Part shown: positions 13,595 to 28,657 of the stretch, piece after piece
Layout: each line of letters begins with the position of its first letter
Numbering within the stretch: position 1 is the first letter of the stretch
Source: Brucella pseudogrignonensis
GTDB lineage: Bacteria > Pseudomonadota > Alphaproteobacteria > Rhizobiales > Rhizobiaceae
DNA length: 64,000 bases
Assembly (NCBI RefSeq): GCF_002252525.1
Contig: NZ_NNRM01000053.1
Coordinates: 186,001-250,000, forward strand
Direction of reading: 5' to 3'
The notes under the pieces: model-generated
What the model was told of the DNA's origin: nothing
Database searches by the model: none
The model's input: the letters and a program-made list of their open reading frames with translations, nothing else
Made by a program: the position numbers and the translations under genes

Positions 13595-13882
13595 TTATTT
13601 ACGAAGCTCGGCTTCGATCTCGTCCAACGTTTTGTCTTTTCCGATACCAGTCAGGAAGGGTAGGCCCTTGATGACTGGCTTGGTGACGGAAGCGGAAATA
13701 GGCGTGGTTGAAACGATGAAATCCACATTGTCAGCTAAAGAGGCTACTTCCGTGGCCTTTGCCTGCTGAGCATTGAAGGTAAGCCCGCGTTTTTTCATTT
13801 CTTCGGTGACTGTTGCGTTGACTGCCGTAGATGTCGCTACACCTGTTCCGCAAGCGAAGAGAATTGTTTTTATTCTAGCCAT
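13595..13882 (-). CDS. PTS EIIB, galactitol type (GatB-like)
   Basis: A 95-residue cytoplasmic phosphocarrier. The ATG at 13882 was chosen over 13909 because GGAGGAAACC precedes it and the fold then begins directly with beta-1. The phosphorylated Cys is C11 in ACGTGVATSTAV, matching the GatB loop. It should receive phosphate from the EIIA encoded upstream and pass it to substrate bound in the EIIC. The order on the minus strand is EIIC, EIIA, EIIB, presumably one operon. Galactitol is the family namesake, but GatB-like subunits also serve other polyols, so the substrate is open. Confidence 0.9.
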   Translation of the reverse strand: MARIKTILFACGTGVATSTAVNATVTEEMKKRGLTFNAQQAKATEVASLADNVDFIVSTTPISASVTKPVIKGLPFLTGIGKDKTLDEIEAELRK

Positions 13883-13970
13883 GGTTTCCTCCAAGTGGTG
13901 TTCGTGCATTCCATGAAACGCGCGAATATCGTATTTTTGTTGTCTCGAATTCGGCTGTTAAGATCTACTC

Positions 13971-14432
13971 TTAATTCAGCGCAGTTTGAATATCTTCAAG
14001 CGTGCGCGCCGCCTTCAGCCTATCGAGTGCATTCGGATCCTGAATTGTCGCCATGATTTGCTGCAAGGTTTCAATCTGTTTGTCCTTGTCATTGATGGCA
14101 AGCAGAAAGACATATCCAACAGAAACGGCCTCTTCAGGATCTTCCATATTGGCAAATTCAATTGGTGATTTCAGGGTTGCAAAGGCAATGCCAGCCTTAA
14201 GCACATGCTCAGGATCGGTATGCGGCACAGCAACGTTTTCTTCGCGCTCAAGCGGCAATCCTGTTGGCATCGTCAGTTCGCGGCTTACGACCGCGTCGGC
14301 GTAGCTTGGCTTTACATAACCCAGCTTTTCCAGCTTGCCCGCCAGAATCCGGATGATCTCTTCATTGGTTTTTGCTTCGCTCTGAAGCTCGATCGCTTGT
14401 GGGTCGAGAAAATCAATCAGACCAGCAGCCAT
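13971..14432 (-). CDS. PTS EIIA, galactitol/fructose type (GatA-like)
   Basis: A 153-residue protein of the PTS_EIIA type 2 family. The phosphorylation site is H71 in VAVPHTDPEHV, matching the AIPH motif of GatA and MtlA. It takes phosphate from HPr, here most likely from the HPr-EI fusion encoded at 23-25 kb, and gives it to the GatB-like EIIB. It is a stand-alone domain, as in the E. coli gat system. A strong hairpin separates it from the EIIC gene upstream, which may set the ratio of membrane to soluble subunits. Confidence 0.92.
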   Translation of the reverse strand: MAAGLIDFLDPQAIELQSEAKTNEEIIRILAGKLEKLGYVKPSYADAVVSRELTMPTGLPLEREENVAVPHTDPEHVLKAGIAFATLKSPIEFANMEDPEEAVSVGYVFLLAINDKDKQIETLQQIMATIQDPNALDRLKAARTLEDIQTALN

Positions 14433-14453
14433 TTCATTCTCCGTTTAAAGAAG

Positions 14454-14479
14454 GTCGCACGTCGGTCTCGACGTGCGAC
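14454..14479 (-). other. Intergenic hairpin between EIIC and EIIA genes
   Basis: A perfect 10-bp stem (GTCGCACGTC with its complement, 6-nt loop) lies in the 77-bp gap. On the minus strand no T-run follows directly, so it is probably an attenuator or mRNA-processing hairpin rather than a full terminator. Confidence 0.5.
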
Positions 14480-14509
14480 TTTTATTTCATGTGTCGATCA
14501 TTGCCAATT

Positions 14510-15919
14510 TTAGGCGGCAATTTCGTCTGCTGGTTCGTCCTCAGCGCCTGCCGCACGCTCCCATGCCTGGGTATTGCGGCGATAGAGCATGAAAAGTGCA
14601 GCAATAACAACGGCGATCACCGCGATACCAATAGCACCAAGCCACTGGATGGCCGATATGATGATGTATGGCACCCACAGGAATCCGTCGACCACTGAAG
14701 TGATCTGCAAGGCGTTCTCAGGCAGCTTGAAGCCGGATGAAACCGCAGCACTCGTAAACAACGGAGCAAGCGCATTGGCTACATAGAAGCCGATTGCCAG
14801 TGTGATCGTTCCTACGACGACCATGCGGAACACGTTTCCTTTCAGAAGCGGTGCAGTCATGGCGACGATGAAAGGAATGACGGCAAGGTCGGCAAACAGG
14901 ATGACGCGGTTGCCTGGCAGGATGACCGAAAGAATGATCGCAATAGGCACCAGAATGAGCGACGACGAGATCGCGGCTGGATGTCCGATAAGGATTGCCG
15001 AGTCGAGACCAACAAGAAGTTCGCGGTCGCCGGTGCGCTTGCGCACAAATTCCTGTGCAGCGTCGGAAACTGGCAGCAGGCCTTCCATCAGGATTTTGAC
15101 CATACGCGGCAGAAGCAACATAACGGCGGCAAGTGTCATGCCTGTGCCGAAAACTTTCGCGAGTACGACGCCGAAATCTCCTGCATTATAAAATGCGATT
15201 AGGCCGAGCACCAAACCGATAATCAGGCCGAGCACAACCGGTTCGCCGAATACACCGAAGCGACGTTCGATGGTTTCCGTGCTGATGTTGATCTTGTTGA
15301 TGCCGGGAATGCGATCCATGATCCAGTTGAGCACGATTGCAATCGGCAGAATCTGTGCCGAGGCCAGATGCGGCACGGAAACCCCCGGTACACCGTAAAA
15401 CTGCTGAACAGCACGCGCCGACCAGTCTGCAAACAGCAGCGAAAGTGCCGCAACAAGTGCTGCAACAATGATGCCGTAAGCCAGGTTATCGGTTGCAGCG
15501 ACAACCAGCGAACCGACGAAAGCAAAGTGCCAGAAGTTCCACACATCGACGTTCAACGTGCGTGTCCAGCGAAGCAGAAGCAGCACGATGTTGACCAGAA
15601 TACCGACAGGAATAACCCAAAGACCCACCGATGAGCCGAAGGCGATTGCCGCAGCCGAAGGCCAGCCTACGTCAACGATATCGCGCTTGATGCCCGTGTT
15701 GGTGACGATTGCCTGAGCCACTTCACCAATAGAGGTGAACATCAAGCCCAGGACCAGATTGATACCGATGAAAGCAACGCCGATGGTGATGGCTGCACGG
15801 AAGGCTTTGCCCACCTTTGCGCCGAGTACCACCGCAATGATGAAGATGACGATAGGCAACAGAACCGTTGCCCCAAGCGTATCGACTGCCGTTTTTAGTC
15901 CGCTCAGAAATGCGTCCAT
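14510..15919 (-). CDS. PTS EIIC, galactitol type (GatC-like)
   Basis: A 469-residue inner-membrane polyol permease. Its N-terminal half follows E. coli GatC closely: LGATVLLPIVIFI, KAFRAAITIGVAFIGINLVLGLM, VDVGWPSAAAIAF, NVDVWNFWHFAFVGSL, IPGINKINISTETIERRFG and FGEPVVLGLIIGLVLG. About ten hydrophobic segments are visible. It moves the substrate through the membrane for phosphorylation by the EIIB. It is the first gene of the leftward operon and is divergent from the SAF oxidoreductase gene across a 279-bp region with two copies of a putative operator. The C-terminus (EDEPADEIAA) is short and acidic. Confidence 0.93.
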   Translation of the reverse strand: MDAFLSGLKTAVDTLGATVLLPIVIFIIAVVLGAKVGKAFRAAITIGVAFIGINLVLGLMFTSIGEVAQAIVTNTGIKRDIVDVGWPSAAAIAFGSSVGLWVIPVGILVNIVLLLLRWTRTLNVDVWNFWHFAFVGSLVVAATDNLAYGIIVAALVAALSLLFADWSARAVQQFYGVPGVSVPHLASAQILPIAIVLNWIMDRIPGINKINISTETIERRFGVFGEPVVLGLIIGLVLGLIAFYNAGDFGVVLAKVFGTGMTLAAVMLLLPRMVKILMEGLLPVSDAAQEFVRKRTGDRELLVGLDSAILIGHPAAISSSLILVPIAIILSVILPGNRVILFADLAVIPFIVAMTAPLLKGNVFRMVVVGTITLAIGFYVANALAPLFTSAAVSSGFKLPENALQITSVVDGFLWVPYIIISAIQWLGAIGIAVIAVVIAALFMLYRRNTQAWERAAGAEDEPADEIAA

Positions 15920-16025
15920 TTATTTCTCCTCCCCCCGGAGCACTCCCAAAGTGCGCCGAGCTAACAGAACGCCATTATTAGCTCGCACGTATCGACGTTT
16001 CAAAATGTGAATTGTGCGAAACGGC

Positions 16026-16041
16026 AGAACATTTGTATTCT
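16026..16041 (+). promoter_or_regulatory. Putative SorC operator, copy 1
   Basis: AGAACATTTGTATTCT, 107-122 bp upstream of the EIIC start. It differs at a single position from the element at 27901-27916 upstream of gutM, and its core recurs in inverted orientation at 16122-16135. Binding by the SorC protein at 21.0-22.0 kb is inferred. Confidence 0.6.
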
Positions 16042-16121
16042 ATAGCAAACTAAAGTTGAATAACAAGATGGCATTTGCGAGCGGGTTGAGGTGCGCGGTT
16101 TATGAACACTGGTATTGACTT

Positions 16122-16135
16122 AGAAACAAATGTTC
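16122..16135 (-). promoter_or_regulatory. Putative SorC operator, copy 2
   Basis: On the minus strand this reads GAACATTTGTTTCT, i.e. the same core as copy 1 with one base fewer in the tail. It lies 64-77 bp upstream of the oxidoreductase start and about 94 bp from copy 1 in opposite orientation, an arrangement suited to control of both divergent promoters by one tetrameric regulator. Confidence 0.55.
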
Positions 16136-16198
16136 ATTAATCGATAAGGTATCAGAGGAGACTGCGAGAATATTTGCAGGGACGTTCAGGAGGAAACG

Positions 16199-17518
16199 AT
16201 GGCAACCAATGTGGCGTTGACAGGTTTGGCGCGTGATATGCAGGCGCGGGCGGATAGTGGGCGACCGATCCGTATCGGACTGATTGGCTCAGGCGAAATG
16301 GGCACCGATATCGTCACGCGCGTTGCGCATATGCCGGGTATCGAAGTTGGTGCTATTTCTGAGCTGCGCGTTCCCAATGCCCTGAAGGCAGTCGATATTG
16401 CTTTTCAGGAAGGAGGTCATGGCCGTGAGGTTTCGACCGCTTCCGATCTGACAGCCGCCATGGAAGCGCATAAGGTTGCCGTAACAGACAACGCCAATCT
16501 GATCCTCGAGAACGATCTTATCGATGTTGTGATCGACGCAACCGGCGTTCCGGCTGTCGGTGCAGAGATTGGCCTGCGCGCCATGGAACACGGCAAGCAT
16601 CTTGTCATGATGAATGTCGAAGCAGACGTGACAATCGGTGCTTATCTGAAAGCAGAAGCCGAACGCCTTGGTGTTACCTATTCGCTGGGCGCTGGGGACG
16701 AGCCGTCATCTTGCATGGAGTTGATCGAGTTTGTGACTGCCATGGGTCATCCGATTGTGGCGGCGGGCAAGGGTAAGAACAACCCGCTCAATATCGATGC
16801 GGTTCCTGATCAATATATGGAAGAAGCCACGCACCGTAACATGAACGTGCGCATGCTGGTGGAATTCGTCGATGGTTCAAAGACCATGGTCGAAATGGCC
16901 GCCATTGCCAATGCGACAGGTCTTGTCCCGGATAAAGCCGGTATGCACGGTCCCGCTGCAACGCTCGACCAGCTCAACAAGACACTGATCCCTGAAAAGG
17001 ACGGCGGTGTGTTGTCCAAAGTTGGTGTGGTTGATTATTCGATCGGGAAGGGTGTAGCACCCGGCGTGTTTGTCGTCGCCGACATGTCGCACCCACGTAT
17101 TTCCGAGCGCATGGAAGACCTGAAGATGGGCAAGGGTCCATATTTCACATTCCATCGCCCATATCACCTGACTTCTCTCGAAGTGCCGCTCACCTGCGCC
17201 CGCGTTGTTCTTTACGGCAAGCCTGACATGGTTCCGCTTTCAAAGCCGGTCGCAGAAGTGGCTGCGGTTGCAAAGAAGGACATGCAGCCGGGCGAAAAGC
17301 TCGATGCGATTGGCGAATATTGCTACCGCGCATGGATCATGACTTCGGGCGAGGCGCGCAGTGCACATGCGATCCCTTGCGGGCTTCTGCAGGGTGGCAG
17401 CGTGACCAAACCGATCAAGAAGGGCGAGCTTATCACCTACGATAATGCGGCCGTGGCTCCCGGTTCCAAGATTGCTGAACTGCGCGCGCGTCAAGACAAG
17501 CTCGTTTACGGAGCGTGA
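16199..17518 (+). CDS. NAD(P)-dependent oxidoreductase with C-terminal SAF domain
   Basis: This 439-residue cytoplasmic protein starts at an ATG behind AGGAGG. Residues 25-40 form a Rossmann dinucleotide motif (RIGLIGSGEMGTDIV). The middle resembles homoserine dehydrogenase-type folds (VIDATGVPAVGAEIGLRAMEHGKHLVMMNVEAD). The C-terminal ~90 residues (from about VAKKDMQPGEKLD to GELITYDNAAV) form a SAF domain like that of antifreeze proteins, FlgA and sugar-acid dehydratases. Such proteins are often annotated only as SAF-domain oxidoreductases. It is the first gene of an operon with E1alpha, E1beta and E2. Since no gatD or srlD lies nearby, it is the best candidate for oxidising the PTS product. 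The exact reaction is unknown. Confidence 0.8.
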   Translation: MATNVALTGLARDMQARADSGRPIRIGLIGSGEMGTDIVTRVAHMPGIEVGAISELRVPNALKAVDIAFQEGGHGREVSTASDLTAAMEAHKVAVTDNANLILENDLIDVVIDATGVPAVGAEIGLRAMEHGKHLVMMNVEADVTIGAYLKAEAERLGVTYSLGAGDEPSSCMELIEFVTAMGHPIVAAGKGKNNPLNIDAVPDQYMEEATHRNMNVRMLVEFVDGSKTMVEMAAIANATGLVPDKAGMHGPAATLDQLNKTLIPEKDGGVLSKVGVVDYSIGKGVAPGVFVVADMSHPRISERMEDLKMGKGPYFTFHRPYHLTSLEVPLTCARVVLYGKPDMVPLSKPVAEVAAVAKKDMQPGEKLDAIGEYCYRAWIMTSGEARSAHAIPCGLLQGGSVTKPIKKGELITYDNAAVAPGSKIAELRARQDKLVYGA

Positions 17519-17530
17519 GGACAAAACATC

Positions 17531-18568
17531 ATGGTTCAAGCCAAAAAAGTCAAACCGCAGGATACGGGCGACCGTCATAACTTGCCTTATGCCTTCCGCA
17601 CCTATTCGCCGGAGCAACTGAAAGAAGCACTGCATAAGATGTATCTCATCCGCCGCTTTGAAGAAGGCGCGGAAGAAAGCTACACACGTGGTCTCATTCA
17701 CGGAACAATGCATCTTTCCATCGGGCAGGAAGCCAGTGCGATGGGATCGTGCCTGCCGCTCAATGACGATGACATGATCACGTCGACCCATCGCGGCCAT
17801 GGCCATTGCATCGCCAAGGGTGCAGACGTGAAACGTATGTTTGCTGAGTTTTTCGGTAAGGAAACAGGTTATTGCAAAGGCCGTGGTGGTTCGATGCACA
17901 TTGCTGACGTTTCTAAGGGAAATCTCGGCGCGAACGGTATTGTCGGTGGCGGTATTCCGATTGCGGTCGGTGCTGCGCTTTCCGCCAAGAAGCAGAAAAA
18001 CGGCAAGGTAGTCGTATCATTCTTTGGTGATGGCGCAAATAATGAAGGCGCTTTCCACGAAGCTCTCAATATGGCGTCTGTCTGGAAGCTTCCTGTTGTT
18101 TTCGTTTGTGAAAACAACGGCTACGGCATGTCCACCTCCACCAAGCGCTCGACAGCGGTTGCCAATGTTGCAGACCGCGCCTCGGCCTACAATATGCCCG
18201 GCGTGATCGTCGATGGTAACAATCTGTCGGAAGTGGCGGAGGCCATCAATGAAGCCACTGAACGCGCACGGCGCGGCGATGGTCCGACGCTGATTGAAAA
18301 CAAGACGTACCGCATTCGTGGTCATTCCAAGAGCGATCGCAACCGTTATCGCACCAAGGAAGAAATCGAGCATTGGCAAAATGATCGCGATCCAATCGCA
18401 TATTTTGAGGCCGACTTGAAAGCCTATGGCTTCATCAATGACGCCGAGATCGAGGAAATCCGCGCTCAAGTGGAGAAGGAAATCGCTGACGCGATCGAGT
18501 TCGCCAAGAATAGTCCGGCACCTGATCTGACCAACCTGACCCGCGACGTTTACACGGACGATATTTGA
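17531..18568 (+). CDS. TPP-dependent dehydrogenase E1 alpha subunit (acetoin/pyruvate type)
   Basis: A 345-residue E1alpha. The thiamine-pyrophosphate motif [31 protein letters not shown] spans about residues 165-195 (G-D-G start, N-N end). [24 protein letters not shown] and [11 protein letters not shown] are typical of AcoA/PdhA. Together with the next two genes it forms a 2-oxoacid- or acetoin-type dehydrogenase that cleaves a C-C bond and passes the acyl unit to lipoate. It has AcoA-like length, with no extra domain. It begins 12 bp after the SAF oxidoreductase stop. Confidence 0.88.
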
Positions 18569-18570
18569 AT

Positions 18571-19569
18571 ATGGACACGACAATCCGTGAGTTGAGCTAT
18601 TCGCAAGCCATCCAGGAAGCAATGGCAATTGCTATGGAACGCGACGACCGCGTGTTCCTGATGGGTGAAGATATTGGCGTCTATGGTGGCGCATTTCAGG
18701 TCACAGGTGATCTGGTGCATCGCTTTGGCGAAGACCGGGTCATGGACACGCCGATTTCAGAATTGGGCGGTGCAGGTGTTGCTGTCGGTGCAGCACTAAC
18801 CGGTATGCGCCCGATCTTTGAGTTCCAGTTCTCCGACTTTGCAGCACTTGCGATGGAACAGATCGTCAACCAGGCTGCGAAAATTCGCTATATGCTTGGC
18901 GGTGCGGTTTCTGTGCCGCTGGTTATGCGGTTTCCGGCAGGGTCGGGAACGGGTGCCGCGGCACAGCACAGCCAGAGCCTTGAAGCATGGCTTGGCCATG
19001 TACCGGGTCTCAAAGTTTTGCAGCCAGCGACCCCTTACGATGCCAAGGGCATGTTGCTCGCAGCCGTTGAAGATCCCGATCCGGTTATGATTTTCGAGCA
19101 TAAGTTGCTCTACAAGACCAAAGGTCCGGTTCCTGAAGGCTTCTACACCGTACCAATCGGCAAGGCGGAAGTGGTTCGCGAAGGGCGCGATCTGACCATC
19201 GTTGCAACTGCAATCATGGTGCACAAAGCCCTTGATGCCGCCGCTGAACTTGCCAAGGAAGGCATTGATGTTGAAGTGATCGACCTGCGCACCGTGCGTC
19301 CGATTGATCGTGAAACCATCATTAAAAGCGTCAAGAAGACGTCGAAGCTTCTTTGCGTTTACGAGGCAGTAAAGACCCTTGGTATAGGCGCTGAAATATC
19401 TGCCATTGTAGCGGAAAGCGATGCCTTTGATTACCTCGATGCGCCGATTGTGCGTCTGGGCGGAGCCGAAACGCCAATTCCTTATAATCCTGATCTTGAA
19501 CGCGCGACCGTTCCGCAGGTGCCTGATATCCTGAAAAGCGCTCGTGATCTGGCCAAAGGAGTGCGCTGA
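18571..19569 (+). CDS. TPP-dependent dehydrogenase E1 beta subunit (acetoin/pyruvate type)
   Basis: A 332-residue E1beta. I use the ATG at 18571 rather than a TTG two codons earlier that overlaps the E1alpha stop. Signatures include [68 protein letters not shown] and [13 protein letters not shown]. It completes the active site with E1alpha. Closest in style to acetoin dehydrogenase AcoB, but a sugar-derived 2-oxo or alpha-hydroxyketone substrate is possible given the PTS context. Confidence 0.88.
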
Positions 19570-20988: not shown

Positions 20989-22002
20989 TTACGCTCTGAG
21001 CATTTCAGCAGCACTTTCCTCATCAGTGATGAGAACGGTTGGCTTCAGAAGCTTCACTGCGCCAAGCAGAGCTGCGATTTTCTCTTTGCCACCTGATGTA
21101 AGAATACGTTGCGGCGTTTTCTGAAGGCTCTCAATTTTGGCCGACATGACACGGTCATGCACTGGATCATCAACGATCTTGCCATTTATATCGTAGAAGT
21201 GAAACAGCACGTCGCCGACCGCACCGTTCTCTATCAGCGACAGTTTCTGCGCCTCGTCGATCAGGCCCACGCGATATGACGTGCTACTCGCAGTCTGAAT
21301 ATCACCGACGCTGAGCAAAACCATATCGAGTTCTTCGGCCATGTCCAACACGGTATTCAGCCCACAACGCTCGATAAGTGCGATCCGTGTTTCTTTGCTG
21401 TCGACCAGAGCAGGGGCGGGGATCAGATAGCCTTCGCCCTGAAAAATCTGCGCAAATTGCCACGCAAATTCCGGTGGGTTTGAACGACGCGGTTGCACGA
21501 TGCCGCCAAGCAGAGAAATTACTTTAAGATCATTGAGCGGGCGGGCACCGATGTGTTGCAGGGTGCTGGAAAGTGTGCGGCCCCAGCCCACGCCGATCGT
21601 CATGCCGTGCTGCACTTTTTCCGAAAGATATGCGCCTGTTGCCGCACTGATCGGTGGTATTGGATCAATGTCAGCCGAAGAGAGGGGCGCGACAATGGCG
21701 CGCTCAAGCCCGAAGGTTTTCTCAAGCTCAACTTCCAATGATGTCAGACTTGCCAGCTTGCCTTCGATCGTAATTTTTACTTCATTGCGAGCGCGTGCAT
21801 CAGCAAGAAGGCGAACGATTGTGACACGGCCGACACCCAGCGCTTCCGCGATATCATTTTGGGTCATTTGTTCGACGTAATACATCCACGCAGCGCGGGT
21901 TCGCAGCCGGCTTGTACGGTTTTCCGCAGCCACACCTTCCGACCCAATGATGAGGTCCGCTGCTTCCGGATTCTTCTGCGTCTTCTTGCCGGCTTTTTTC
22001 AA
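20989..22002 (-). CDS. SorC/DeoR-type sugar-binding transcriptional regulator
   Basis: A 337-residue protein with an N-terminal helix-turn-helix (MTQNDIAEALGVGRVTIVRLL, about residues 46-66) and a C-terminal sugar-phosphate-binding domain (GMTIGVGWGRTLSSTLQHI, VISLLGGIVQ, RILTSGGKEKIAALLGAV). SorC proteins usually sense a phosphorylated intermediate of the pathway they control. It sits in the middle of the PTS island, next to the E2 operon, and is the likely reader of the AGAACATTTGT elements. Its helix-turn-helix is close to that of the second SorC protein at 35.0-36.0 kb. The charged N-terminal tail of about 35 residues is longer than in the second one. Confidence 0.88.
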   Translation of the reverse strand: MKKAGKKTQKNPEAADLIIGSEGVAAENRTSRLRTRAAWMYYVEQMTQNDIAEALGVGRVTIVRLLADARARNEVKITIEGKLASLTSLEVELEKTFGLERAIVAPLSSADIDPIPPISAATGAYLSEKVQHGMTIGVGWGRTLSSTLQHIGARPLNDLKVISLLGGIVQPRRSNPPEFAWQFAQIFQGEGYLIPAPALVDSKETRIALIERCGLNTVLDMAEELDMVLLSVGDIQTASSTSYRVGLIDEAQKLSLIENGAVGDVLFHFYDINGKIVDDPVHDRVMSAKIESLQKTPQRILTSGGKEKIAALLGAVKLLKPTVLITDEESAAEMLRA

Positions 22003-22149
22003 AACTGTCCCTCAAATTATTGGCGTATTATTACATTATAGAAGTCGTGTTCTTACACCGAAACTATTGCTTTTCCGTGCGAAGGCAAACAATAATTCAT
22101 GTGCTTGTTGCATCCTGTTACGATGGCGCTGCAGTTGAGGAAAATGAAC

Positions 22150-22935
22150 ATGTTACACATTCTTTCGGAAGAAATTGCAGTCAACCTGAAGGACCGCCTG
22201 CGGGAGGTTCGATACATGATTCGTCGCAATCGTCATGAAAGTTTGCAGGTCGAACAATCAGCGACACGTCCGGGAGAAATCGTGTCGCCGGAATTGTTGC
22301 TGGGACACGCCGCAAGCGTGATGGATAAGGCGCTGACAACGGCTGAAACAATTTCGATTTCGCTGATTTCGTCTAATCCAAATGTGCACAACAGCGCGCC
22401 GCATGTGAAAAGCCTGTCGGTTTATTTCGGCGCTGGTGCGGAGGGCGCACGCGCTTTTCGTAAGGATATGTATTACCTCACAAAAGACGTGCTCCGCCGC
22501 CATCAATTGCAGAATGTGCTGATTCAGGAAGCCGCATTTGTCACGGTCCACGCCAGAATGATGCAAAAGCATCGCGCGTTGTTGAAGAGCGTTTTTTCGT
22601 CAGAAGCTGGAGATACGAAGATTGCAGCAACGGCCAGAGCTGTCGCGGCTCTATTTCTGGAACTGCTTGAAGAAAGACCAGTACGATTTGTCTCGATGGA
22701 TGGTCATTGCGACCCGCAGGCGCTGCGTAGATTTGAAACAACGTGCTTTGCGGCTGTCGGTATCGCTTGTGGTCTGGCAACAGCAAAAGCGGCAGATCTG
22801 GCAGGCGTCGATCCTTTGGAAAGCGCCATTCTGGCGCTGGATGTACGCCATGATCGTCTCGTGCAGGCTGCAGAAGACCGCGATGAGGCTCAGCTCGAAA
22901 TACTGTTCCAGACTTTGATTGCTCATCTTCCATAA
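22150..22935 (+). CDS. Unrecognised protein in the PTS island
   Basis: A 261-residue soluble protein with no signal peptide or membrane segment. Of three in-frame ATGs (22099, 22144, 22150) the last has GAGG nine bases upstream and begins MLHILSEEIAV. The sequence is helix-rich. Its last ~40 residues (SAILALDVRHDRLVQAAEDRDEAQLEIL) loosely recall the FCD ligand domain of GntR regulators, but I see no DNA-binding motif. It is divergent from the SorC gene across about 147 bp and convergent with the HPr-EI gene, with a shared terminator. Its position suggests a regulatory or accessory role for the PTS. No function is assigned. Confidence 0.6.
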   Translation: MLHILSEEIAVNLKDRLREVRYMIRRNRHESLQVEQSATRPGEIVSPELLLGHAASVMDKALTTAETISISLISSNPNVHNSAPHVKSLSVYFGAGAEGARAFRKDMYYLTKDVLRRHQLQNVLIQEAAFVTVHARMMQKHRALLKSVFSSEAGDTKIAATARAVAALFLELLEERPVRFVSMDGHCDPQALRRFETTCFAAVGIACGLATAKAADLAGVDPLESAILALDVRHDRLVQAAEDRDEAQLEILFQTLIAHLP

Positions 22936-22991: not shown

Positions 22992-24968
22992 CTAACTGCC
23001 GAACATATCCGCGATATGCTTTTTTGCTCGGGGAATTGAAGCCGGACTCATGCTGAGTTCCGTCAACCCCATACGAATGAATTCCCCGATAAGCTCCGGC
23101 TTTCCAGCTGCTTCCCCACACATGCCGACCATGATGCCTGCTTCCGTTCCCGCCTTCGCGGTCATCTCGATTGCAGCCATTACAGCCGGATGTCTGACAT
23201 CATTAAGCTTTGCAACGGTTGGATTGAGCCGATCCGCAGCCATCACATACTGTGTTAGATCATTGGTGCCGATGGAGAAGAAAGCAGCTTCTTTTGCGAG
23301 CTCTCGGGCAGCGAAAACCGCCGCAGGTGTCTCTATCATTACGCCCAGGTCAAACTCCGCAAATGCTTTGCCTTCGGTTTTAAGCTCAGTGATGCATTCC
23401 GCGATAAGGCCTCTGGTCGCACGAATTTCTTCAACATCCGAAACCATGGGCAACATCACTTTGAGATTGCCGTTAACCGCTGAACGCAACAGCGCCCGCA
23501 ATTGCGGTTTGAATACATCCGGGCGGTCCAGACACATACGAATGCCGCGCCACCCAAGGAAAGGGTTTTCTTCCTCGGGAAACTCAATCCCCGCAATCGG
23601 CTTGTCACCACCAATATCCAACGTGCGAACGATCACGGAGTTTGGCGCGAAAGCTTTCAGAAGTGCCGTATAAGTTTCTGTCTGCATATCTTCTGAAGGC
23701 AGGTGAATGTGCTTCATGAACAGAAGTTCGGTGCGGAAAAGTCCGACACCCATCGCACCGGCTTCGAGTGCAACATCGATTTCTTCCAGCGCACCCATAT
23801 TGGCTGCCACTTCGATGATTGTTCCGTCAGCGCGACGCGGCGTGATGGAGCGGTAGGCATTCAGCGCCTGCTTTTCCTGTAGCGCTTTGGAAATGCGCGC
23901 TTCGATTTCGTCGCGGGTGGCTATATCCGGATCGGCATGAACGATGCCGAAACTTCCATCCACTGCTACGGTTTTCGCATTCTTGAGCTGTTGAACTGCA
24001 CTTCCAAGGCCAAGAACCGCCGGAATACCGTGCGTGCGGGCGATGATGGCGACATGCGATGTTGCGCCGCCGTGACCACAAACTACGCCTTTGATCTTCT
24101 TGAGCGGCGCGCGCGCCAGATCCCAAGCGCCGATGTCTTCTGCAATAAGCACCGAGCCTTCCGGCAGGCCTTCCAGATTGATGTCTTCCTTACCAAGCAG
24201 AGCCAGACAAATCTGGCGGCTAACAGCGTGCACATCATCCGCGCGTGCGTTGAGATACGGATCGTCAAGTGCCGCAAATTGGCCGGCCACAGTTGAAGCT
24301 GCAGCGAGCATGGCCGAAATTGCATCAAGACCGCCCCGAATAAGTCCAAGCGCTTCGTCGGTCAGGCTGTCATCAGCTGCTATGTCTTTCAAGGCTGCAA
24401 TAATGCCTCGGTCAGCATCGGCGAGATTGCCGCTGGAGAGGGAAGCGTCCATGCGCTGCTGCACTGTCGCGATTGCAGATTTGAAATGGGCAATTTCGGC
24501 GTCTATTTCAGATGCTGCAAGTTTTCGACCCGAAGGTTTGATCTCTTCAGGAAAGAACGGAAAAGCTGTTCCCAAAGAAATGCCTTCGCTGGCCCCCACG
24601 CCTTTTATCTGACCAACAGGAAGCTTGTTCGAGATTGCAGGCTGCGGGGTGGCTTCGGCTTGAGGCGTAGCCATAGGAGCAGGAGTACTCGGGGTTGTAG
24701 TTTCTTCAAGGCCAGCCTGCGGGTTCTCCAGATAGCCTATCAAAGCTTCAATGGCTTCAATAGCATCTGCCCCATCAGCACGAACGGTCACTTCATCGAG
24801 CTCTTTTACGCCAAGCAGCATCAGCTTCACGGAGCTTTTGGCACTTACGCTTTTTCCGGCCTTGGCAATTTCGATGTCACTCTCAAAACCTTTGGCCAGT
24901 TTAACAAAGCGAGTTGCAGGGCGCGCATGCAGCCCTTCATGAACCCGGACGATAGTCGAGCGTTCCAT
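22992..24968 (-). CDS. HPr-Enzyme I fusion (general PTS phosphotransfer protein)
   Basis: A 658-residue cytoplasmic protein. Residues 1-85 are a full HPr domain with the phosphorylated H14 in EGLHARPAT and a regulatory-type Ser at 46 (SAKSSVKLM). Residues about 88-118 are a Pro/Ala/Thr-rich linker. From about 120 to the end is Enzyme I: GVGASEGISLG, active-site H305 in GGATSHVAIIARTHGIPAV, PEP-binding EEENPFLGWRGIRM, GTNDLTQY and the Cys in GMCGEAAGKP. It takes phosphate from PEP and feeds the EIIAs encoded on either side, making the island independent of the housekeeping PTS. It is last in the gutM-EIIC-EIIB-EIIA operon. The start follows GAGG. No GAF domain is seen, so it is not EI-Ntr. Confidence 0.93.
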   Translation of the reverse strand: MERSTIVRVHEGLHARPATRFVKLAKGFESDIEIAKAGKSVSAKSSVKLMLLGVKELDEVTVRADGADAIEAIEALIGYLENPQAGLEETTTPSTPAPMATPQAEATPQPAISNKLPVGQIKGVGASEGISLGTAFPFFPEEIKPSGRKLAASEIDAEIAHFKSAIATVQQRMDASLSSGNLADADRGIIAALKDIAADDSLTDEALGLIRGGLDAISAMLAAASTVAGQFAALDDPYLNARADDVHAVSRQICLALLGKEDINLEGLPEGSVLIAEDIGAWDLARAPLKKIKGVVCGHGGATSHVAIIARTHGIPAVLGLGSAVQQLKNAKTVAVDGSFGIVHADPDIATRDEIEARISKALQEKQALNAYRSITPRRADGTIIEVAANMGALEEIDVALEAGAMGVGLFRTELLFMKHIHLPSEDMQTETYTALLKAFAPNSVIVRTLDIGGDKPIAGIEFPEEENPFLGWRGIRMCLDRPDVFKPQLRALLRSAVNGNLKVMLPMVSDVEEIRATRGLIAECITELKTEGKAFAEFDLGVMIETPAAVFAARELAKEAAFFSIGTNDLTQYVMAADRLNPTVAKLNDVRHPAVMAAIEMTAKAGTEAGIMVGMCGEAAGKPELIGEFIRMGLTELSMSPASIPRAKKHIADMFGS

Positions 24969-25075: not shown

Positions 25076-25456
25076 CTAGCCGTCGATGGTGATAATCTGC
25101 CCTTCTTTGAGAGCAGCGACAAGGTCTTCACCTGCTATTTCGCTGGCACAGATTTCACCGGGGCGATCAGTTGAATTCGCGCCTGTGAAGGAAATAACGA
25201 CGTGCCCGATTTCGCGCACCTTCTGCCAGGCGCTTTCGCCAACGGCAGTAATCTCTGCTTTGAGAGAACCAATGGTTATCTTTGCTCCAATAGCGGGAGC
25301 TGATGCTTCAGGACCTTCTTCCACGACGTGAAGAACAGATACTTCTGCCAGTTCAGGTGGCGAGCCGTCAGCAAACAGGATGAGAACGCCGCCTTCGGCG
25401 AGATCCGCTACTTCCGGGCCGATCGCGGTGATCCGCGTTTTCAGATGTATCGACAT
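25076..25456 (-). CDS. PTS EIIA, glucitol/sorbitol type (SrlB/GutB-like)
   Basis: A 126-residue cytoplasmic EIIA of the glucitol family. The ATG at 25456 follows AAAGGA and aligns with the E. coli SrlB start; the longer frame to 25504 adds 16 residues without a ribosome site. Shared features include the early TxITxIG strand (KTRITAIG), a likely phospho-His in VSVLHVVEEG, ITAVGESAWQKVREIGHVVISF and the C-terminal LKEGQIITIDG. It accepts phosphate from HPr and passes it to the SrlE-like EIIB encoded upstream. The length matches E. coli SrlB (123). Confidence 0.88.
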   Translation of the reverse strand: MSIHLKTRITAIGPEVADLAEGGVLILFADGSPPELAEVSVLHVVEEGPEASAPAIGAKITIGSLKAEITAVGESAWQKVREIGHVVISFTGANSTDRPGEICASEIAGEDLVAALKEGQIITIDG

Positions 25457-25575
25457 AGAGGCGGTCCTTTCTTGGTATAGTCGTTCGATGCCCACGAAAG
25501 TCAATCAGGAACATCGATATTGTACATGTTTGGGAAAATGCCTGCCGCCGCTTCTGCCGCAGCAGGCTCAGAGTT

Positions 25576-26562
25576 TTACAGCACTGCGAGGCTGACGAGC
25601 CATGCGATCAGAACCGAAAGTGGGCCCATGATCTGACGGCTGATCAGAACTGCCGGAACACCAATTTCAATGGTCTTCGGCTTCGCTTCTCCAAGTGCCA
25701 GACCGACCGGCACGAAGTCGCAACCGACCTGTGTGTTGTAGGCAAACAGTGCAGGCAGGGCCATCGCCGGGGCGATTGTGCCGTTTGCGATCTGTGGCCC
25801 GATGATTGCCACGCCAACAACCTGCGCAATAACCGCACCTGGTCCGAGGATTGGCGAAAGGAACGGTAGGCCGCAAATTGCAGAAAGCACCAGCAAACCA
25901 ACAATGTTATTGGCAAGCGGTCCGAGTGGCTGAGCAAGGATGTCGCCGATACCCGTGTAGAGGATCAGGCCGATCAGCATTGTTACGAATGCCATGAATG
26001 GCAAAACGTTACGGATAACCTGATCAATTGTGCGTCGACCAGCCTGGAAGAAGATACCAACCACACGGCCCATGACGCGACCAATGCTGCTGATGAGGCC
26101 GACAATACCGCCTTCGCTTGGCAGTTCTACCGGAACAGGCGTTTCCTCTTCTGCGGCGGCTGCAGCAGGAGCTGCGGCAGCCGAACCATCAGCTGGAACA
26201 ATATTTTCCGGCTTCACACCCGAAACATAAATATCCTCGGTGATGAATTGTGCGAGAGGCCCGGATTGTCCAACCGGCGTAATGTTCACCGTTGGAATGC
26301 GCTTGCGTGGATAGACGCCGCAACGGGCTGTACCTCCGCAATCGACAACCACGACGGCCATTTCGCTTTCGATTGGTGGTGAGCGGAAACCGTCAACGGC
26401 TTCCGCGCCGGTCAGCTCAGCAATCTGGCGTGCAAGTGGATGGATGCCACCGCCAGTGACAGAAACCACCTTATTACGCTGCTCGGTTGGCTGAATGACT
26501 AGTGGTCCGCCCCAGCCATTTGAGCCGCGGGAAATCTTAACTGCCTTATAGGTCTTTACCAT
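25576..26562 (-). CDS. PTS EIIB(C), glucitol/sorbitol type (SrlE-like)
   Basis: A 328-residue protein with a cytoplasmic EIIB head (residues 1-~115) and a membrane part (about 165-328). The phospho-Cys is C75 in VVVDCGGTARCGVYPRKRIPTVN, nearly identical to E. coli SrlE. GGGIHPLARQIAELTGAEAVDGF is also diagnostic. The membrane part carries LPFLSPILGPGAVIAQVVGV and VGCDFVPVGLALGEAKPKTIEIGVPAVL. An Ala/Glu-rich linker joins the two. It phosphorylates the polyol during transport together with the SrlA-like EIIC. The start has GGGAGG upstream. Length fits SrlE (319). Confidence 0.93.
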   Translation of the reverse strand: MVKTYKAVKISRGSNGWGGPLVIQPTEQRNKVVSVTGGGIHPLARQIAELTGAEAVDGFRSPPIESEMAVVVVDCGGTARCGVYPRKRIPTVNITPVGQSGPLAQFITEDIYVSGVKPENIVPADGSAAAAPAAAAAEEETPVPVELPSEGGIVGLISSIGRVMGRVVGIFFQAGRRTIDQVIRNVLPFMAFVTMLIGLILYTGIGDILAQPLGPLANNIVGLLVLSAICGLPFLSPILGPGAVIAQVVGVAIIGPQIANGTIAPAMALPALFAYNTQVGCDFVPVGLALGEAKPKTIEIGVPAVLISRQIMGPLSVLIAWLVSLAVL

Positions 26563-26583
26563 GTCGTCCTCCCCAATTCCCGC

Positions 26584-27369
26584 TTAAAGCTCAATGCCCT
26601 GACGCCGCGCCATGATGGCGGTGATGCGTTCTGTGAGCATGCCTTTAAGGAGGATCACGACGAGACCAACGATTGCGTACCAGATGGCGACGTTGATGTG
26701 ATAACCTGTTGGAACAGCACCTTTCTTCTCAAGTTCGAGAAGTGCAACGAGCACGCCGCCCCAGACAAAATACTCGCCCGGATTGATATGCGGGAAGAGA
26801 CCCAGCGGAGGATGGACGTAGGACACAGCCGCGTCATAGAAAGCAGGCTTGTATTTTTCGTCCAGGAACGAGCCAAATGTATAAGCCATTGGATTGGTCA
26901 GGAAGAAGACCGCGAGCACTGGCAGAACCGTATAGCGGGTAAGCGCGATACGTCCGGCGCTTCGTGCGAGGCCATGGACGCGCTTTTCACCGACCAGTTC
27001 AGTTACGGCGTAAAACGCTGTCATCAGCACGACGAGTGTCGGGATGATACCAGTTACAAATCCGGCGAAAACTTCGCCACCTTTCTGGAAGACGCCAATG
27101 AAGTGCTTGCCGATAGAGGCAAGCCAGCCAAGCTGTTCTTCCTGCTGGACGTTCTGAAGTCGTTCTTTGAACTGATCGACGGTAATTCCGCCGCTGCCAG
27201 CATCGCCCGGCGCGGTGGTGGTCGCTTGTGCAAGCTGTAGTAAGTCATTTCCTGCGTGCTCTGCGGCGTGTTTGCCGTGCAGGGCGGCATCGGAAATCAT
27301 GCTGCCAGCCATATGTATTGTTTGCATCGTTGTGTCGGCATGTTGTGCCAACATCGTCACTATCGACAT
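26584..27369 (-). CDS. PTS EIIC, glucitol/sorbitol type (SrlA-like) with N-terminal extension
   Basis: A 261-residue membrane protein. The start ATG at 27369 has GGAGGA before it. From about residue 80 it follows E. coli SrlA closely: IGVFQKGGEVFAGFVTGIIP, TRYTVLPVLAVFFLTNPMAYTFGSF, DEKYKPAFYDAAVSYVHPPLGLFPHINPGEYFVWGG and LLKGMLTERITAIMARRQGIEL. E. coli SrlA is 187 residues and lacks the first ~75 seen here, which are Ala-, Gln- and His-rich with an amphipathic stretch (VDQFKERLQNVQQEEQL). It forms the membrane channel with the SrlE-like subunit. The function of the extension is unknown. Confidence 0.9.
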   Translation of the reverse strand: MSIVTMLAQHADTTMQTIHMAGSMISDAALHGKHAAEHAGNDLLQLAQATTTAPGDAGSGGITVDQFKERLQNVQQEEQLGWLASIGKHFIGVFQKGGEVFAGFVTGIIPTLVVLMTAFYAVTELVGEKRVHGLARSAGRIALTRYTVLPVLAVFFLTNPMAYTFGSFLDEKYKPAFYDAAVSYVHPPLGLFPHINPGEYFVWGGVLVALLELEKKGAVPTGYHINVAIWYAIVGLVVILLKGMLTERITAIMARRQGIEL

Positions 27370-27406
27370 TGTTCCTCCTCGATTGCTTGTTTCAGGCAAG
27401 CAACTC

Positions 27407-27838
27407 CTATGCTCCCACTGCCTTCAGACCTTCGAGCTCGATTCCATCGGATTGATCTCTTATGCGACCGATCTGCTCCATCGCCTGTTTGGCAGCAGCC
27501 ACCACTTCAGGCGTTCCTTCTCCAATTGCGGGATTGTCCTGCAATTCGCTGAGGCGCATTCCCTCGAAGCCTTCGCGGCGGCTGAATTGTGCAAAAACCG
27601 TCCGTCCGCTCATTTGCAGGAAGCGTCGCACCTCCAAGTTGCGGTCTACGACGATCAACACGATGACGCCTTTGCCGAAGCGTCCCCGAATATGCCCCGC
27701 ACCAACAAAACCGTCAGAATATTTCGAAGTGATGCCCTTCATCACATCGGAATAGTGGCGCATCTGGAACCATACGCCCAGCGACTGAAAGCCCCACAGC
27801 AAAGCAAGCGCCAGCAAAGCCCATTGCCAGATAGCCAT
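27407..27838 (-). CDS. gutM: GutM-type protein of the glucitol PTS operon
   Basis: A 143-residue protein with one N-terminal membrane segment (AIWQWALLALALLWGFQSLGVW) and a GutM-type body (MKGITSKYSDGFVGAGHIRGRFGKGVIVLIVVDRNLEV). In enterobacteria GutM is described as an activator of the glucitol (gut/srl) operon, though the membrane segment suggests it acts at the membrane. Here it is the first gene of the leftward operon gutM-EIIC-EIIB-EIIA-ptsHI, with a putative operator 63-78 bp before its start. Its presence supports a glucitol-class PTS. Confidence 0.87.
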   Translation of the reverse strand: MAIWQWALLALALLWGFQSLGVWFQMRHYSDVMKGITSKYSDGFVGAGHIRGRFGKGVIVLIVVDRNLEVRRFLQMSGRTVFAQFSRREGFEGMRLSELQDNPAIGEGTPEVVAAAKQAMEQIGRIRDQSDGIELEGLKAVGA

Positions 27839-27900
27839 TTTTGATCTCCTCCCACGAAGGACGAACAGGATATTTTCCGAGTTCGTCTTTCATCAATTAG

Positions 27901-27916
27901 AGAACATTTGTCTTCT
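27901..27916 (+). promoter_or_regulatory. Putative SorC operator upstream of gutM
   Basis: AGAACATTTGTCTTCT matches the element at 16026-16041 in 15 of 16 positions. A looser opposite half (AAGACGAATG, 27951-27960) lies 35 bp further on. At 27964-27974 the minus strand also reads GAAATGTCAGT, resembling the other locus motif TGACWAATGTCAGT. Confidence 0.6.
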
Positions 27917-28021
27917 TGAATGTCAATATGTATAATTTGTCCGATAATCGAAGACGAATGAAGACTGACATTTCTATCGGTTTCGAATAATGTCATTTGC
28001 AAACGGGAGGTCGCTCGCAAC

Positions 28022-28657
28022 ATGGACTTGGTACTCAGAGAACAAATGGCATCAATGCCTGATTTGCGCCATCGACTGCGCCAGCTGCGCTGGTTCAGGG
28101 CGACATTTCGCAAACATGCTGCTCTGTTGCATGAGCTCTATGGCGTTGAATACGACATTGATGAAAAGAAGCTCACCGAGGCGTTCCTGAACTGGGTAGA
28201 GCTGGTCAATCAAAACAAGCGTTTTGCCAAGGTGGACCGCAACGATTTCATTACTTTTGCTGCAGGTCTTGTGTTGCGCGAGTTGATCCGTTTGTCGCCA
28301 GCGAAGGTCGTTTCATCGCCGAAACATGCCACGGGCGATTCTGCCCGCCTTTACGAGATCGTTAGCTTCTGGCCAGAAGGTTTTCTCTACACCAACTACT
28401 GTATCTGCGCCATTGCCGCTGTGCAGGAGCAGGAGTTTGGCACGGTGCCGGATATCGACCAATGTGCCGATGAGCTTCGGACATGGTGGTCTTACAAAGA
28501 AAATGTCTCGGAAATGCCAGGCTATGCGATCGCGTTTCTCGATAAGTTTCTTGGCAGCGAACCGAACTGGGTTATGCCGGATCTGGCTTCGGCGCGTGCC
28601 GCTGTGAAACGCGCCCTTGGCGAAAGTAATCCCGTCACGAAGATACAGAGAAAATAA
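28022..28657 (+). CDS. Unrecognised protein divergent from gutM
   Basis: A 211-residue soluble protein preceded by GGGAGG about 10 bp upstream. No signal peptide and no membrane segment. It is predicted to be helical, with many aromatic residues (LRQLRWFRATFRKHAALLHELYG; IVSFWPEGFLYTNYCICAIAAV; ELRTWWSYKENV). I recognise no domain. Divergent transcription from the gutM PTS operon across a 183-bp region with the putative operator suggests the same regulon. It does not resemble the other unknown protein at 22.1 kb. It could be a PTS-associated accessory or metabolic protein; no function is assigned. Confidence 0.6.
   Translation: MDLVLREQMASMPDLRHRLRQLRWFRATFRKHAALLHELYGVEYDIDEKKLTEAFLNWVELVNQNKRFAKVDRNDFITFAAGLVLRELIRLSPAKVVSSPKHATGDSARLYEIVSFWPEGFLYTNYCICAIAAVQEQEFGTVPDIDQCADELRTWWSYKENVSEMPGYAIAFLDKFLGSEPNWVMPDLASARAAVKRALGESNPVTKIQRK

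What the first reader, a model, noticed from the sequence alone, without database searches (positions are those of the whole stretch)
13595..28657. Self-contained polyol PTS island in an alphaproteobacterium
Seen: GatABC-like and Srl/GutABC-like enzyme II sets, GutM, and an HPr-Enzyme I fusion within 15 kb, plus a SorC regulator. Known: brucellae and most rhizobia use a PTS mainly for regulation (PTS-Ntr) and lack sugar enzyme IIs. Inference: the island brings in one or two polyols independently of the host PTS and was probably gained as a unit. Two complete enzyme II sets of different families under a shared operator are unusual; they may take up related polyols, or the products of both may feed one pathway.
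Basis: partly seen in the sequence, partly recalled or inferred. Interest (0 to 1): 0.8.

Follow-up and report, generated by a model that had tools for sequence, protein, structure and literature searches.

The report
Reverse isoprenoid-pathway operon for methylerythritol
[quoted passage not shown] if true, it would explain why many bacteria carry an apparently redundant isoprenoid enzyme.

Summary
Window 13595-27838 has complete Gat-type and Srl/Gut-type enzyme II sets, GutM, an HPr-Enzyme I fusion and a SorC regulator.

Proposed pathway (inferred): PTS uptake of 2-C-methyl-D-erythritol gives MEP; DXR-II run backwards gives DXP; an acetoin-dehydrogenase-like complex cleaves DXP to acetyl-CoA and glyceraldehyde 3-phosphate.

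Shown here:
- E1alpha accompanies DXR-II in 66 of 80 loci, against 0 of 30 class-wide loci, 29 of them distant relatives.
- E1alpha, SrlE and a second DXR-II go together: 23 genus genomes have all, 12 have none.
- A conserved operator precedes DXR-II, the Srl operon and the Gat operon, but none of 14 housekeeping DXR-II genes.
- The set recurs in Acetobacteraceae, Paracoccus and a Priestia plasmid; ABC-plus-kinase versions occur in Sinorhizobium and Agrobacterium.

Ten paper searches listed none describing this. Substrate and direction are untested. In four genomes the operon's DXR-II is the only DXR detected, and a few genomes carry extra DXR-II without E1.

The parts
13595..13909 (-). GatB-like PTS enzyme IIB
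   Evidence: PF02302 E 9e-10; Cys motif CGTGVATS
13971..14432 (-). GatA-like PTS enzyme IIA
   Evidence: PF00359 E 3e-34; His motif VAVPH
14510..15919 (-). GatC-like PTS enzyme IIC
   Evidence: PF03611 292 bits; TIGR00827 441.6 bits, below its cut-off of 542.2
16026..16041 (+). operator copy 1 (AGAACATTTGTATTCT), gat side of the gatC-DXR-II intergenic
16126..16135 (-). operator copy 2 (GAACATTTGT), 64-73 bp upstream of DXR-II
   Evidence: conserved across loci
16199..17518 (+). DXR-II (DRL), DXP reductoisomerase type II; proposed to run MEP to DXP
   Evidence: PF21135 226.6 bits; 719 bits to 3upl/3upy; diagnostic residues K191, K193, T229, R320
17531..18568 (+). E1 alpha, thiamine-diphosphate dehydrogenase; proposed DXP-cleaving
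   Evidence: PF00676; own clade 100/100 on the acetoin-dehydrogenase side; H57/T59 signature
18565..19569 (+). E1 beta
   Evidence: NF006667 401 bits, cut-off 321; clade 100/100 in a tree where it is represented by a 97% identical relative, L010
19572..20912 (+). E2, AcoC type (lipoyl domain, E3-binding domain, alpha/beta-hydrolase-fold acetyltransferase)
   Evidence: NF011457 435.4 bits, cut-off 307
20989..22002 (-). SorC-family regulator, presumed to bind the operator
   Evidence: PF04198 E 3e-55; binding not tested
22099..22935 (+). conserved unknown protein, 278 aa, found with the island in Brucella, Pseudochrobactrum and Phyllobacterium
   Evidence: no family match; homologues in at least 10 of the 80 loci
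22992..24968 (-). HPr-Enzyme I fusion
   Evidence: TIGR01417 469.5 bits; HPr and EI active-site motifs
25076..25504 (-). SrlB/GutA-like PTS enzyme IIA
   Evidence: PF03829 E 6e-28
25576..26562 (-). SrlE PTS enzyme IIBC
   Evidence: NF049924 451.9 bits, cut-off 400; solved relative 9x2m
26584..27399 (-). SrlA PTS enzyme IIC
   Evidence: NF049923 188.3 bits, cut-off 150
27407..27838 (-). GutM-like protein
   Evidence: PF06923 89.3 bits
27901..27916 (+). operator copy 3 (AGAACATTTGTCTTCT), upstream of gutM
28022..28657 (+). conserved unknown protein, 211 aa, often beside the Srl operon; mostly helical model (pLDDT 73)
   Evidence: no family match; model; recurs in the loci

Best explanation
The island is an inducible catabolic regulon for 2-C-methyl-D-erythritol (or a very close 2-methyltetrol). 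[quoted passage not shown] E1alpha/beta takes the acetyl unit of DXP onto thiamine diphosphate, releasing glyceraldehyde 3-phosphate; E2 hands the acetyl to CoA; a general lipoamide dehydrogenase reoxidises E2. SorC, sensing a phosphorylated intermediate, controls all three operons through GAACATTTGT. Shown by computation: gene identities, linkage, co-distribution, shared operator, DXR-II signature, separate E1 clade. Inferred: substrate, direction, DXP cleavage, SorC binding.
For: The island gene is a true DXR-II by sequence: 10 of 10 tested family residues, while two 35-36% identical relatives, DLO by these residues, differ at 229 and 193. DXR-I is absent from all 31 good-quality genomes of the genus, where a separate DXR-II copy, 73-77% identical and without PTS or E1 in 14 of 14 fetched 19 kb loci, is the likely housekeeping enzyme. 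E1alpha accompanies DXR-II in 66 of 80 loci and in 0 of 30 class-wide loci, mostly about 3.5 kb long and 29 of them distant relatives. E1alpha and SrlE occur in the same 23 of 35 genus genomes. Operator (one mismatch allowed; exact in 13) within 150 bp of DXR-II in 66 of 80 loci, 65 of the 66 with E1alpha, 0 of 14 housekeeping copies; exact before gutM in 21 of 21 (chance 0.7% per 150 bp). Same set in Terrarubrum, Pseudoroseomonas and Paracoccus versutus, and with E1, E2, E3, Srl PTS and HPr on a Priestia plasmid. In Sinorhizobium and Agrobacterium an ABC transporter plus sugar kinase replaces the PTS, and lpdA and lipA join the cluster, as expected if a phosphorylated substrate and a lipoyl complex are needed. 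E2 partners are of two unrelated acetyltransferase types (AcoC and PDH-type), which suggests acetyl-CoA as product. DXP is an acetyl-bearing ketol like acetoin, and mutant E. coli PDH E1 raises DXP in vivo (PMC3424233, abstract and passages).
Against: No enzyme assay or growth datum was found for any member. In G191, G238, G257 and G261 the E1-linked DXR-II is the only DXR detected, so there it probably also makes MEP for isoprenoids. G224 and G258 have DXR-I and DXR-II but no E1alpha of this clade, G275 has two DXR-II and none, and G234 has the E1/E2/PTS island without DXR-II beside it (its E1alpha match holds a stop). 14 of 80 DXR-II loci have no E1 nearby; Listeria has DXR-II with the Srl PTS but no E1/E2 in 19 kb. 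The operator was before gatC in only 1 of 3 plasmid loci and not before the Listeria gutM. The DXR equilibrium favours MEP (recalled), so catabolism needs pull from E1/E2. E1alpha lacks the AcoA residues at positions 57 and 59, narrowly misses the PDH E1alpha cut-off and its nearest solved relatives are PDH; DXP specificity is inferred. No E3 gene lies in the island. Methylerythritol as PTS substrate is deduced from product logic alone.
Confidence: 0.65

Rival explanations
1. The regulon degrades a different branched or terminal-deoxy polyol (2-C-methylthreitol, 1-deoxypentitols or another relative). DXR-II acts as a reductoisomerase or plain dehydrogenase on its phosphate, and E1/E2 cleaves the resulting methyl ketol.
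For: Two enzyme II sets of different families could serve more than one stereoisomer. The logic needs only a methyl-ketol intermediate. The Ligilactobacillus cluster pairs DXR-II and the Srl PTS with a fructose-6-phosphate aldolase and a transketolase, suggesting some flexibility of the downstream step.
Against: All ten DXR-II substrate and dimer residues tested are kept, as in the family reported to make MEP (PMC3847144, sections 5-6), so MEP/DXP is the most economical substrate pair.
Confidence: 0.2
2. The DXR-II is simply an extra isoprenoid biosynthesis enzyme. The neighbouring PTS and E1/E2 serve an unrelated polyol and pyruvate or acetoin, and the linkage is incidental.
For: DXR-II is known as a biosynthetic enzyme, and O. 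anthropi and M. loti are said to have additional functional paralogues (PMC3847144, section 5). In four genomes the E1-linked copy is the only DXR detected, and G224, G258 and G275 carry extra DXR-II without E1alpha of this clade.
Against: A shared operator joins DXR-II to both PTS operons and is absent from all 14 housekeeping copies. The linkage recurs in two phyla with different gene orders. G202, G255, G256 and G277 already have DXR-I yet keep DXR-II with E1alpha.
Confidence: 0.1
3. The PTS salvages external 2-C-methyl-D-erythritol as MEP for isoprenoid biosynthesis rather than as a carbon source.
For: PTS uptake would deliver MEP directly to the biosynthetic pathway (inference).
Against: Salvage needs neither DXR-II nor a DXP-cleaving acetyltransferase complex, yet DXR-II, E1alpha, E1beta and E2 form the conserved block under the operator.
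Confidence: 0.05

Closest known systems
DXR-II / DRL family (B. abortus DXP reductoisomerase-like enzyme, PDB 3upl/3upy)
   Same: Same family: PF21135, about 719 bits to the solved protein, all ten diagnostic residues tested.
   Different: Known as a biosynthetic MEP-forming enzyme; here it sits in an operator-bearing operon with polyol PTS and a proposed ketol-cleaving complex, with a separate DXR-II elsewhere in the genome.
Acetoin dehydrogenase complex (AcoA/AcoB/AcoC)
   Same: E1alpha/beta fall on the acetoin-dehydrogenase side of the split from PDH; E2 is AcoC-type; the proposed chemistry (ketol cleavage to acetyl-CoA + aldehyde) is the same.
   Different: Separate clade 100/100; H57 and T59 replace the P and F of the AcoA references; no acoX or butanediol dehydrogenase in the island; proposed aldehyde product is glyceraldehyde 3-phosphate.
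Sorbitol (srl/gut) and galactitol (gat) PTS operons of enterobacteria
   Same: Same enzyme II families, with GutM.
   Different: No sorbitol-6-phosphate or galactitol-1-phosphate dehydrogenase and no tagatose-bisphosphate aldolase in the island; own HPr-EI fusion; DXR-II is its only polyol-phosphate oxidoreductase candidate.
Tetritol (erythritol, threitol) catabolic operons
   Same: Small-polyol uptake, phosphorylation and oxidation to central metabolites (recalled, not compared here).
   Different: The island uses PTS, reductoisomerase and ketol cleavage; no erythritol-pathway gene was noticed among its members.

Membership tests
DXR-II (DXP reductoisomerase type II) | Match to the DRL catalytic-domain family | tested here: met
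   PF21135 226.6 bits, cut-off 27
DXR-II (DXP reductoisomerase type II) | Substrate and dimer residues K191, K193, T229, E174, F178, R320, Y322 of the family | tested here: met
   All present in the window protein; two distant relatives have P or I at 229 and E or L at 193; positions from PMC3847144 section 6
DXR-II (DXP reductoisomerase type II) | Makes MEP from DXP / complements a dxr mutant | not testable with these tools
   PMC3847144 section 5 says O. anthropi and M. loti have additional functional paralogues; whether one is this orthologue was not checked
Acetoin dehydrogenase complex | E1alpha/E1beta cluster away from pyruvate dehydrogenase | tested here: met
   Split 100/100 in both trees; the window's E1beta is represented by L010, 97% identical
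Acetoin dehydrogenase complex | E2 of AcoC type with alpha/beta-hydrolase fold | tested here: met
   NF011457 435.4 bits, cut-off 307
Acetoin dehydrogenase complex | E1alpha residues of reference AcoA at positions 57 and 59 (P, F) | tested here: not met
   H57 and T59 in 13 of 13 aligned DXR-II-linked E1alpha, P and F in the AcoA references
Acetoin dehydrogenase complex | Clustered with acetoin/butanediol genes | tested here: not met
   None in the island; present in the reference operons L148 and L150
Pyruvate dehydrogenase E1 | NCBIfam equivalog cut-off for E1alpha | tested here: not met
   TIGR03182 390.0 bits against 393.85, a near miss; the Priestia homologue passes at 396.7
Srl/Gut PTS permease | SrlA, SrlE, SrlB and GutM family matches | tested here: met
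   NF049923, NF049924, PF03829, PF06923 all above cut-off; the TIGR models TIGR00821, TIGR00825 and TIGR00849 are below theirs
Gat PTS permease | EIIC-GAT family with IIA and IIB partners | tested here: met
   PF03611, PF00359, PF02302 above cut-off
Gat PTS permease | Galactitol-specific NCBIfam cut-offs | tested here: not met
   TIGR00827 441.6 against 542.2; PRK10310 44.8 against 95; PRK09665 59.5 against 139
Sorbitol or galactitol catabolic operon | Polyol-phosphate dehydrogenase (SrlD, GatD) or GatYZ aldolase | tested here: not met
   No such gene among the island ORFs
2-C-methylerythritol catabolic pathway (proposed) | Growth on and induction by 2-C-methyl-D-erythritol | not testable with these tools
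   Needs experiment

The most novel reading that the evidence does not exclude
[quoted passage not shown] The 'alternative' biosynthetic DXR-II of brucellae and relatives was recruited from this catabolic enzyme, which then allowed DXR-I to be lost.
Probability: 0.55. Interest if true: 0.9.

Novelty: new variant of a known kind. Interest (0 to 1): 0.8.

Why it matters
The patchy, seemingly redundant spread of DXR-II among bacteria that already have DXR-I, or that lack the rest of the MEP pathway (Finegoldia, Anaerococcus), was left open by the family's survey (PMC3847144, sections 7 and 9), which invoked gene dosage, fosmidomycin tolerance and gene loss. A catabolic origin would explain much of it and can be tested with growth and enzyme assays. 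It would also give a bacterial sink for methylerythritol, assign a new activity to a clade of E1/E2 complexes now annotated as pyruvate or acetoin dehydrogenase parts, and assign substrates to Srl and Gat PTS sets now annotated as sorbitol or galactitol systems, perhaps including the one beside DXR-II in Listeria. Anyone treating DXR-II as a drug target should know which copy is catabolic.

Tried and rejected
A galactitol or sorbitol operon was considered and rejected: no matching dehydrogenase or aldolase in the island. Homoserine dehydrogenase for the oxidoreductase was rejected: 19.3 bits against a cut-off of 205, against 226.6 bits for DRL_cat. Acquisition by recent transfer could not be supported from composition. 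An E1alpha tree with the mixture model gave branch lengths of 10 and was replaced by LG+G4 trees without the two most distant E1 paralogues and, for E1alpha, without the cut-off Priestia copy L087. The 16-base form of the operator with 3 mismatches was no better than chance (3 found, 2.67 expected); the 10-base core was significant. Paper searches showed only the top 4-20 listings each; none of the listed titles or abstract starts describes methylerythritol catabolism. The library lacks most subscription papers, including the original DRL paper and its structure paper, so prior publication is not excluded. The Fisher values ignore relatedness of the genomes and are only descriptive; none is used in the argument.
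Full report
1. What is there. The window lies in a 5.53 Mb genome. The closest DXR-II relatives in named records are in Brucella pituitosa (100% identity over the best segment), B. tritici, B. rhizosphaerae and Ochrobactrum chromiisoli, so it belongs to the Brucella/Ochrobactrum group. Window 13595-28657 holds, in order: GatB, GatA, GatC (minus strand); an oxidoreductase, E1alpha, E1beta and E2 (plus strand); SorC (minus); a 278-aa unknown (plus); HPr-Enzyme I, SrlB, SrlE, SrlA, GutM (minus); and a 211-aa unknown (plus).

2. The key gene. The 'SAF oxidoreductase' is type II DXP reductoisomerase (DXR-II, also DRL): PF21135 226.6 bits, aligned without gaps over residues 1-435 to the solved chain 3upl. 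The family survey PMC3847144 (sections 5, 6, 7 and 9 read) names residues conserved in DXR-II and changed in two related families, DLO1 and DLO2, four members of which failed to complement. The window protein keeps 10 of 10 of them that I tested; of the 17 other DXR-II compared (which include the own genome's second copy), three differ: Priestia at 351, and Enterococcus raffinosus and Ligilactobacillus at 174 and 322. The Deinococcus and Natronococcus relatives (35-36% identical), which I call DLO by these residues, differ at 229 and 193 among others.

3. Two DXR-II genes, two roles. The own genome has two DXR-II and no DXR-I. Across 35 genomes of the genus, DXR-II is in 35 and DXR-I in 1 (G009, 69% complete; 0 of 31 good genomes). 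The island's E1alpha (at least 88% identity) is in 23 of 35, the SrlE family in the same 23 of 35. By my reading of the match list, the 23 carry two DXR-II matches above 215 bits and the 12 others one; in G002 and G009, low-quality assemblies, the matches are fragmented, and G009 and G024 have a further match of about 195 bits. The second copy is 73-77% identical to the island's and had no PTS, E1 or E2 match to the island's proteins within its fetched 19 kb in 14 of 14 loci. Of the 29 best-match genus loci, 19 were island-type (93% or more), all 19 with E1alpha next door; the 10 others had none.

4. Linkage beyond the genus. Of 30 class-wide loci, most only about 3.5 kb long, 29 are 29-35% identical relatives and one is a truncated 54% match (L188); none has E1alpha of at least 60% identity. 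Named records: Terrarubrum has SorC, HPr-EI, Srl set, GutM, DXR-II, E1alpha/beta, AcoC-type E2. Pseudoroseomonas cervicalis has the same plus GatC, GatA, GatB. Paracoccus versutus has the Srl set; Allorhizobium pseudoryzae has Gat, HPr-EI and SorC, with no Srl set in the fetched stretch. Rhizobium sp. L51/94 has both sets. A mobilizable Priestia aryabhattai plasmid carries GutM, Srl set, HPr, E1alpha/beta, E2, lpdA, SorC, DXR-II and an FGGY kinase. Sinorhizobium meliloti Rm41 and Agrobacterium CFBP7129 plasmids have an ABC transporter and a sugar kinase (PfkB family in the Agrobacterium case) in place of the PTS and add lpdA and lipA. Aminobacter sp. NyZ550 has DXR-II, E1 and E2 without a PTS or sugar kinase in its 19 kb. 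Listeria has SorC, DXR-II, GutM and the Srl set but no E1/E2 within 19 kb. Ligilactobacillus has DXR-II, Srl PTS, GutM, SorC, a fructose-6-phosphate aldolase and a transketolase. Pararhizobium A13 has neither PTS nor E1 matches.

5. Shared operator. GAACATTTGT occurs three times in the window, all in the two relevant intergenic regions (0.10 expected, 0 of 100 shuffles with 3). In one search, allowing one mismatch, it lies within 150 bp upstream of DXR-II in 66 of 80 genome-contig loci (exact in 13), 11 of 12 plasmid loci, 12 of 14 family loci (exact in 0) and 18 of 29 genus loci (19 of which are island-type); within 250 bp of gutM it is exact in 21 of 21 genome contigs and 8 of 8 family loci, and within one mismatch in 4 of 5 plasmid loci (Listeria lacks it); before gatC, within one mismatch, in 9 of 9 genome contigs and 14 of 14 genus loci but only 1 of 3 plasmid loci; it is absent from 14 of 14 housekeeping copies. 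It tracks E1: 65 of 66 loci with E1alpha have it (exception L048) and 13 of 14 without lack it (exception L039). Both exceptions are near-identical DXR-II genes of one Phyllobacterium genome, as if their contexts had been exchanged. Shuffled upstream sequence gives 0.7% per 150 bp. In DXR-II/DLO loci under 45% identity it is in 3 of 36.

6. The E1/E2 complex. In trees of 29 rows each, the alphaproteobacterial DXR-II-linked E1alpha and E1beta each form a clade with 100/100 support, separated from PDH by a 100/100 branch and near, but not inside, acetoin dehydrogenase; the Priestia E1 falls outside that clade. The window's E1beta is represented in its tree by L010, 97% identical. Long branches make the exact sister uncertain. 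H57 and T59 are in 13 of 13 aligned linked E1alpha including Priestia, and in a C. difficile plasmid E1; AcoA references have P and F, PDH has G and F, and one unlinked genus E1 (G033 C86) has K and T. Position 59 corresponds to a Phe near the cofactor in human PDH (recalled). By NCBIfam the window E1alpha narrowly misses the PDH E1alpha cut-off, and its nearest solved relatives are PDH. E2 partners alternate between AcoC type (window, Pseudoroseomonas) and PDH type (Sinorhizobium; 444.4 against cut-off 445), both acetyltransferases.

7. Mechanism. DXP is CH3-CO-CHOH-R, an acetoin-like ketol. An acetoin-dehydrogenase-like complex would yield acetyl-CoA and glyceraldehyde 3-phosphate. Precedent for DXP chemistry at an E1 site: mutations in E. 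coli PDH E1 rescue dxs mutants and raise DXP about 20-fold in vivo (PMC3424233, abstract and passages). Working backwards, the substrate of DXR-II would be MEP and that of a polyol PTS 2-C-methyl-D-erythritol. Each step after gene identity is inference. Plants divert a MEP-pathway intermediate to hemiterpene glycosides (title of a reference seen in PMC6850158), and isoprene reacting with hydroxyl radicals gives 2-methyltetrols (passage in PMC12190140); these are possible natural sources.

8. Evolution. In the DXR-II tree (44 rows) the genus's housekeeping clade (100/99) sits inside an alphaproteobacterial clade (100/99), at an unresolved position, so it could be that clade's first branch. The sister group (3 of 4 rows) and the Bacillota branch (5 of 5 rows) are PTS- or E1-linked; Pararhizobium A13 is not, and the root is weakly placed. 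This fits recruitment of a catabolic enzyme for biosynthesis, but ancestral states were not computed.

9. Against a strict division. In a family sample of 121 genomes, DXR-II (E at most 1e-63) was in 72 and DXR-I in 46, with 6 having both; E1alpha of this clade was in 18, beside DXR-II in 16. In G234 the E1/E2/PTS island has no DXR-II beside it, its E1alpha match holds a stop, and the only DXR-II is on another contig; in G267 E1alpha lies at a contig edge and no DXR-II was found. With a looser limit (12 genomes), the E1-linked copy is the only DXR detected in G191, G238, G257 and G261. There it must presumably serve both directions, or the catabolic reading is wrong for them. G202, G255, G256 and G277 have DXR-I and keep DXR-II only with E1alpha, as expected for a catabolic enzyme; but G224 and G258 have both DXR types, and G275 two DXR-II, without E1alpha of this clade, which this reading does not explain.

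10. Novelty. Ten full-text searches listed no paper describing this pathway (only the top listings were seen); in PMC3847144 a term search found 'phosphotransferase' and 'catabol' zero times, and a 2026 J Bacteriol paper still presents DXR-II as the second form of the biosynthetic enzyme (two passages seen). The library is partial. The parts are known families; the combination and direction appear unreported. I rate it a new variant of a known kind (a polyol PTS catabolic regulon) built on an apparently unreported route.

Noticed in passing
window 29116-38278: A second sugar cluster next door: RhaS/LsrB-like binding protein, sugar ABC ATPase, two permeases, PfkB kinase, another SorC-like regulator and a bifunctional aldolase/short-chain dehydrogenase. 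It has no exact GAACATTTGT operator.
   Followed up: partly
L039 and L048 (Phyllobacterium endophyticum PEPV15): Two near-identical DXR-II genes in one genome whose contexts look swapped: one has the operator but no E1, the other has E1 and the PTS but no operator.
   Followed up: partly
L149 (Clostridioides difficile plasmid pZ1322PCD0001-2), 6013-11933: A SorC-E1alpha-E1beta-E2-lpdA cluster whose E1alpha shares the H57/T59 signature, without an annotated DXR-II in 15 kb; it may cleave DXP or a similar ketol rather than acetoin.
   Followed up: no
L086 and L144 (Ligilactobacillus salivarius plasmids): DXR-II with Srl PTS, GutM and SorC is followed by a fructose-6-phosphate aldolase and a transketolase instead of E1/E2, perhaps a fermentative version of the route.
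   Followed up: no
L085 (Listeria monocytogenes NCTC7974 record), 7790-12602: SorC-like regulator, DXR-II, GutM and a 'glucitol/sorbitol' PTS form one cluster; the PTS may carry methylerythritol rather than sorbitol.
   Followed up: no
L064 (record titled Bacillus subtilis SK6B4): The record carries a rhizobial DXR-II 85-86% identical to the window's, so it is probably mislabelled or contaminated.
   Followed up: no
window 28022-28657 and 22099-22935: Two conserved proteins without any family match travel with the island; the 211-aa one gives a mostly helical model of moderate confidence.
   Followed up: partly
window 46001-48000: GC content falls to 0.437 against 0.486-0.573 in the other 2 kb steps of the window.
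   Followed up: no
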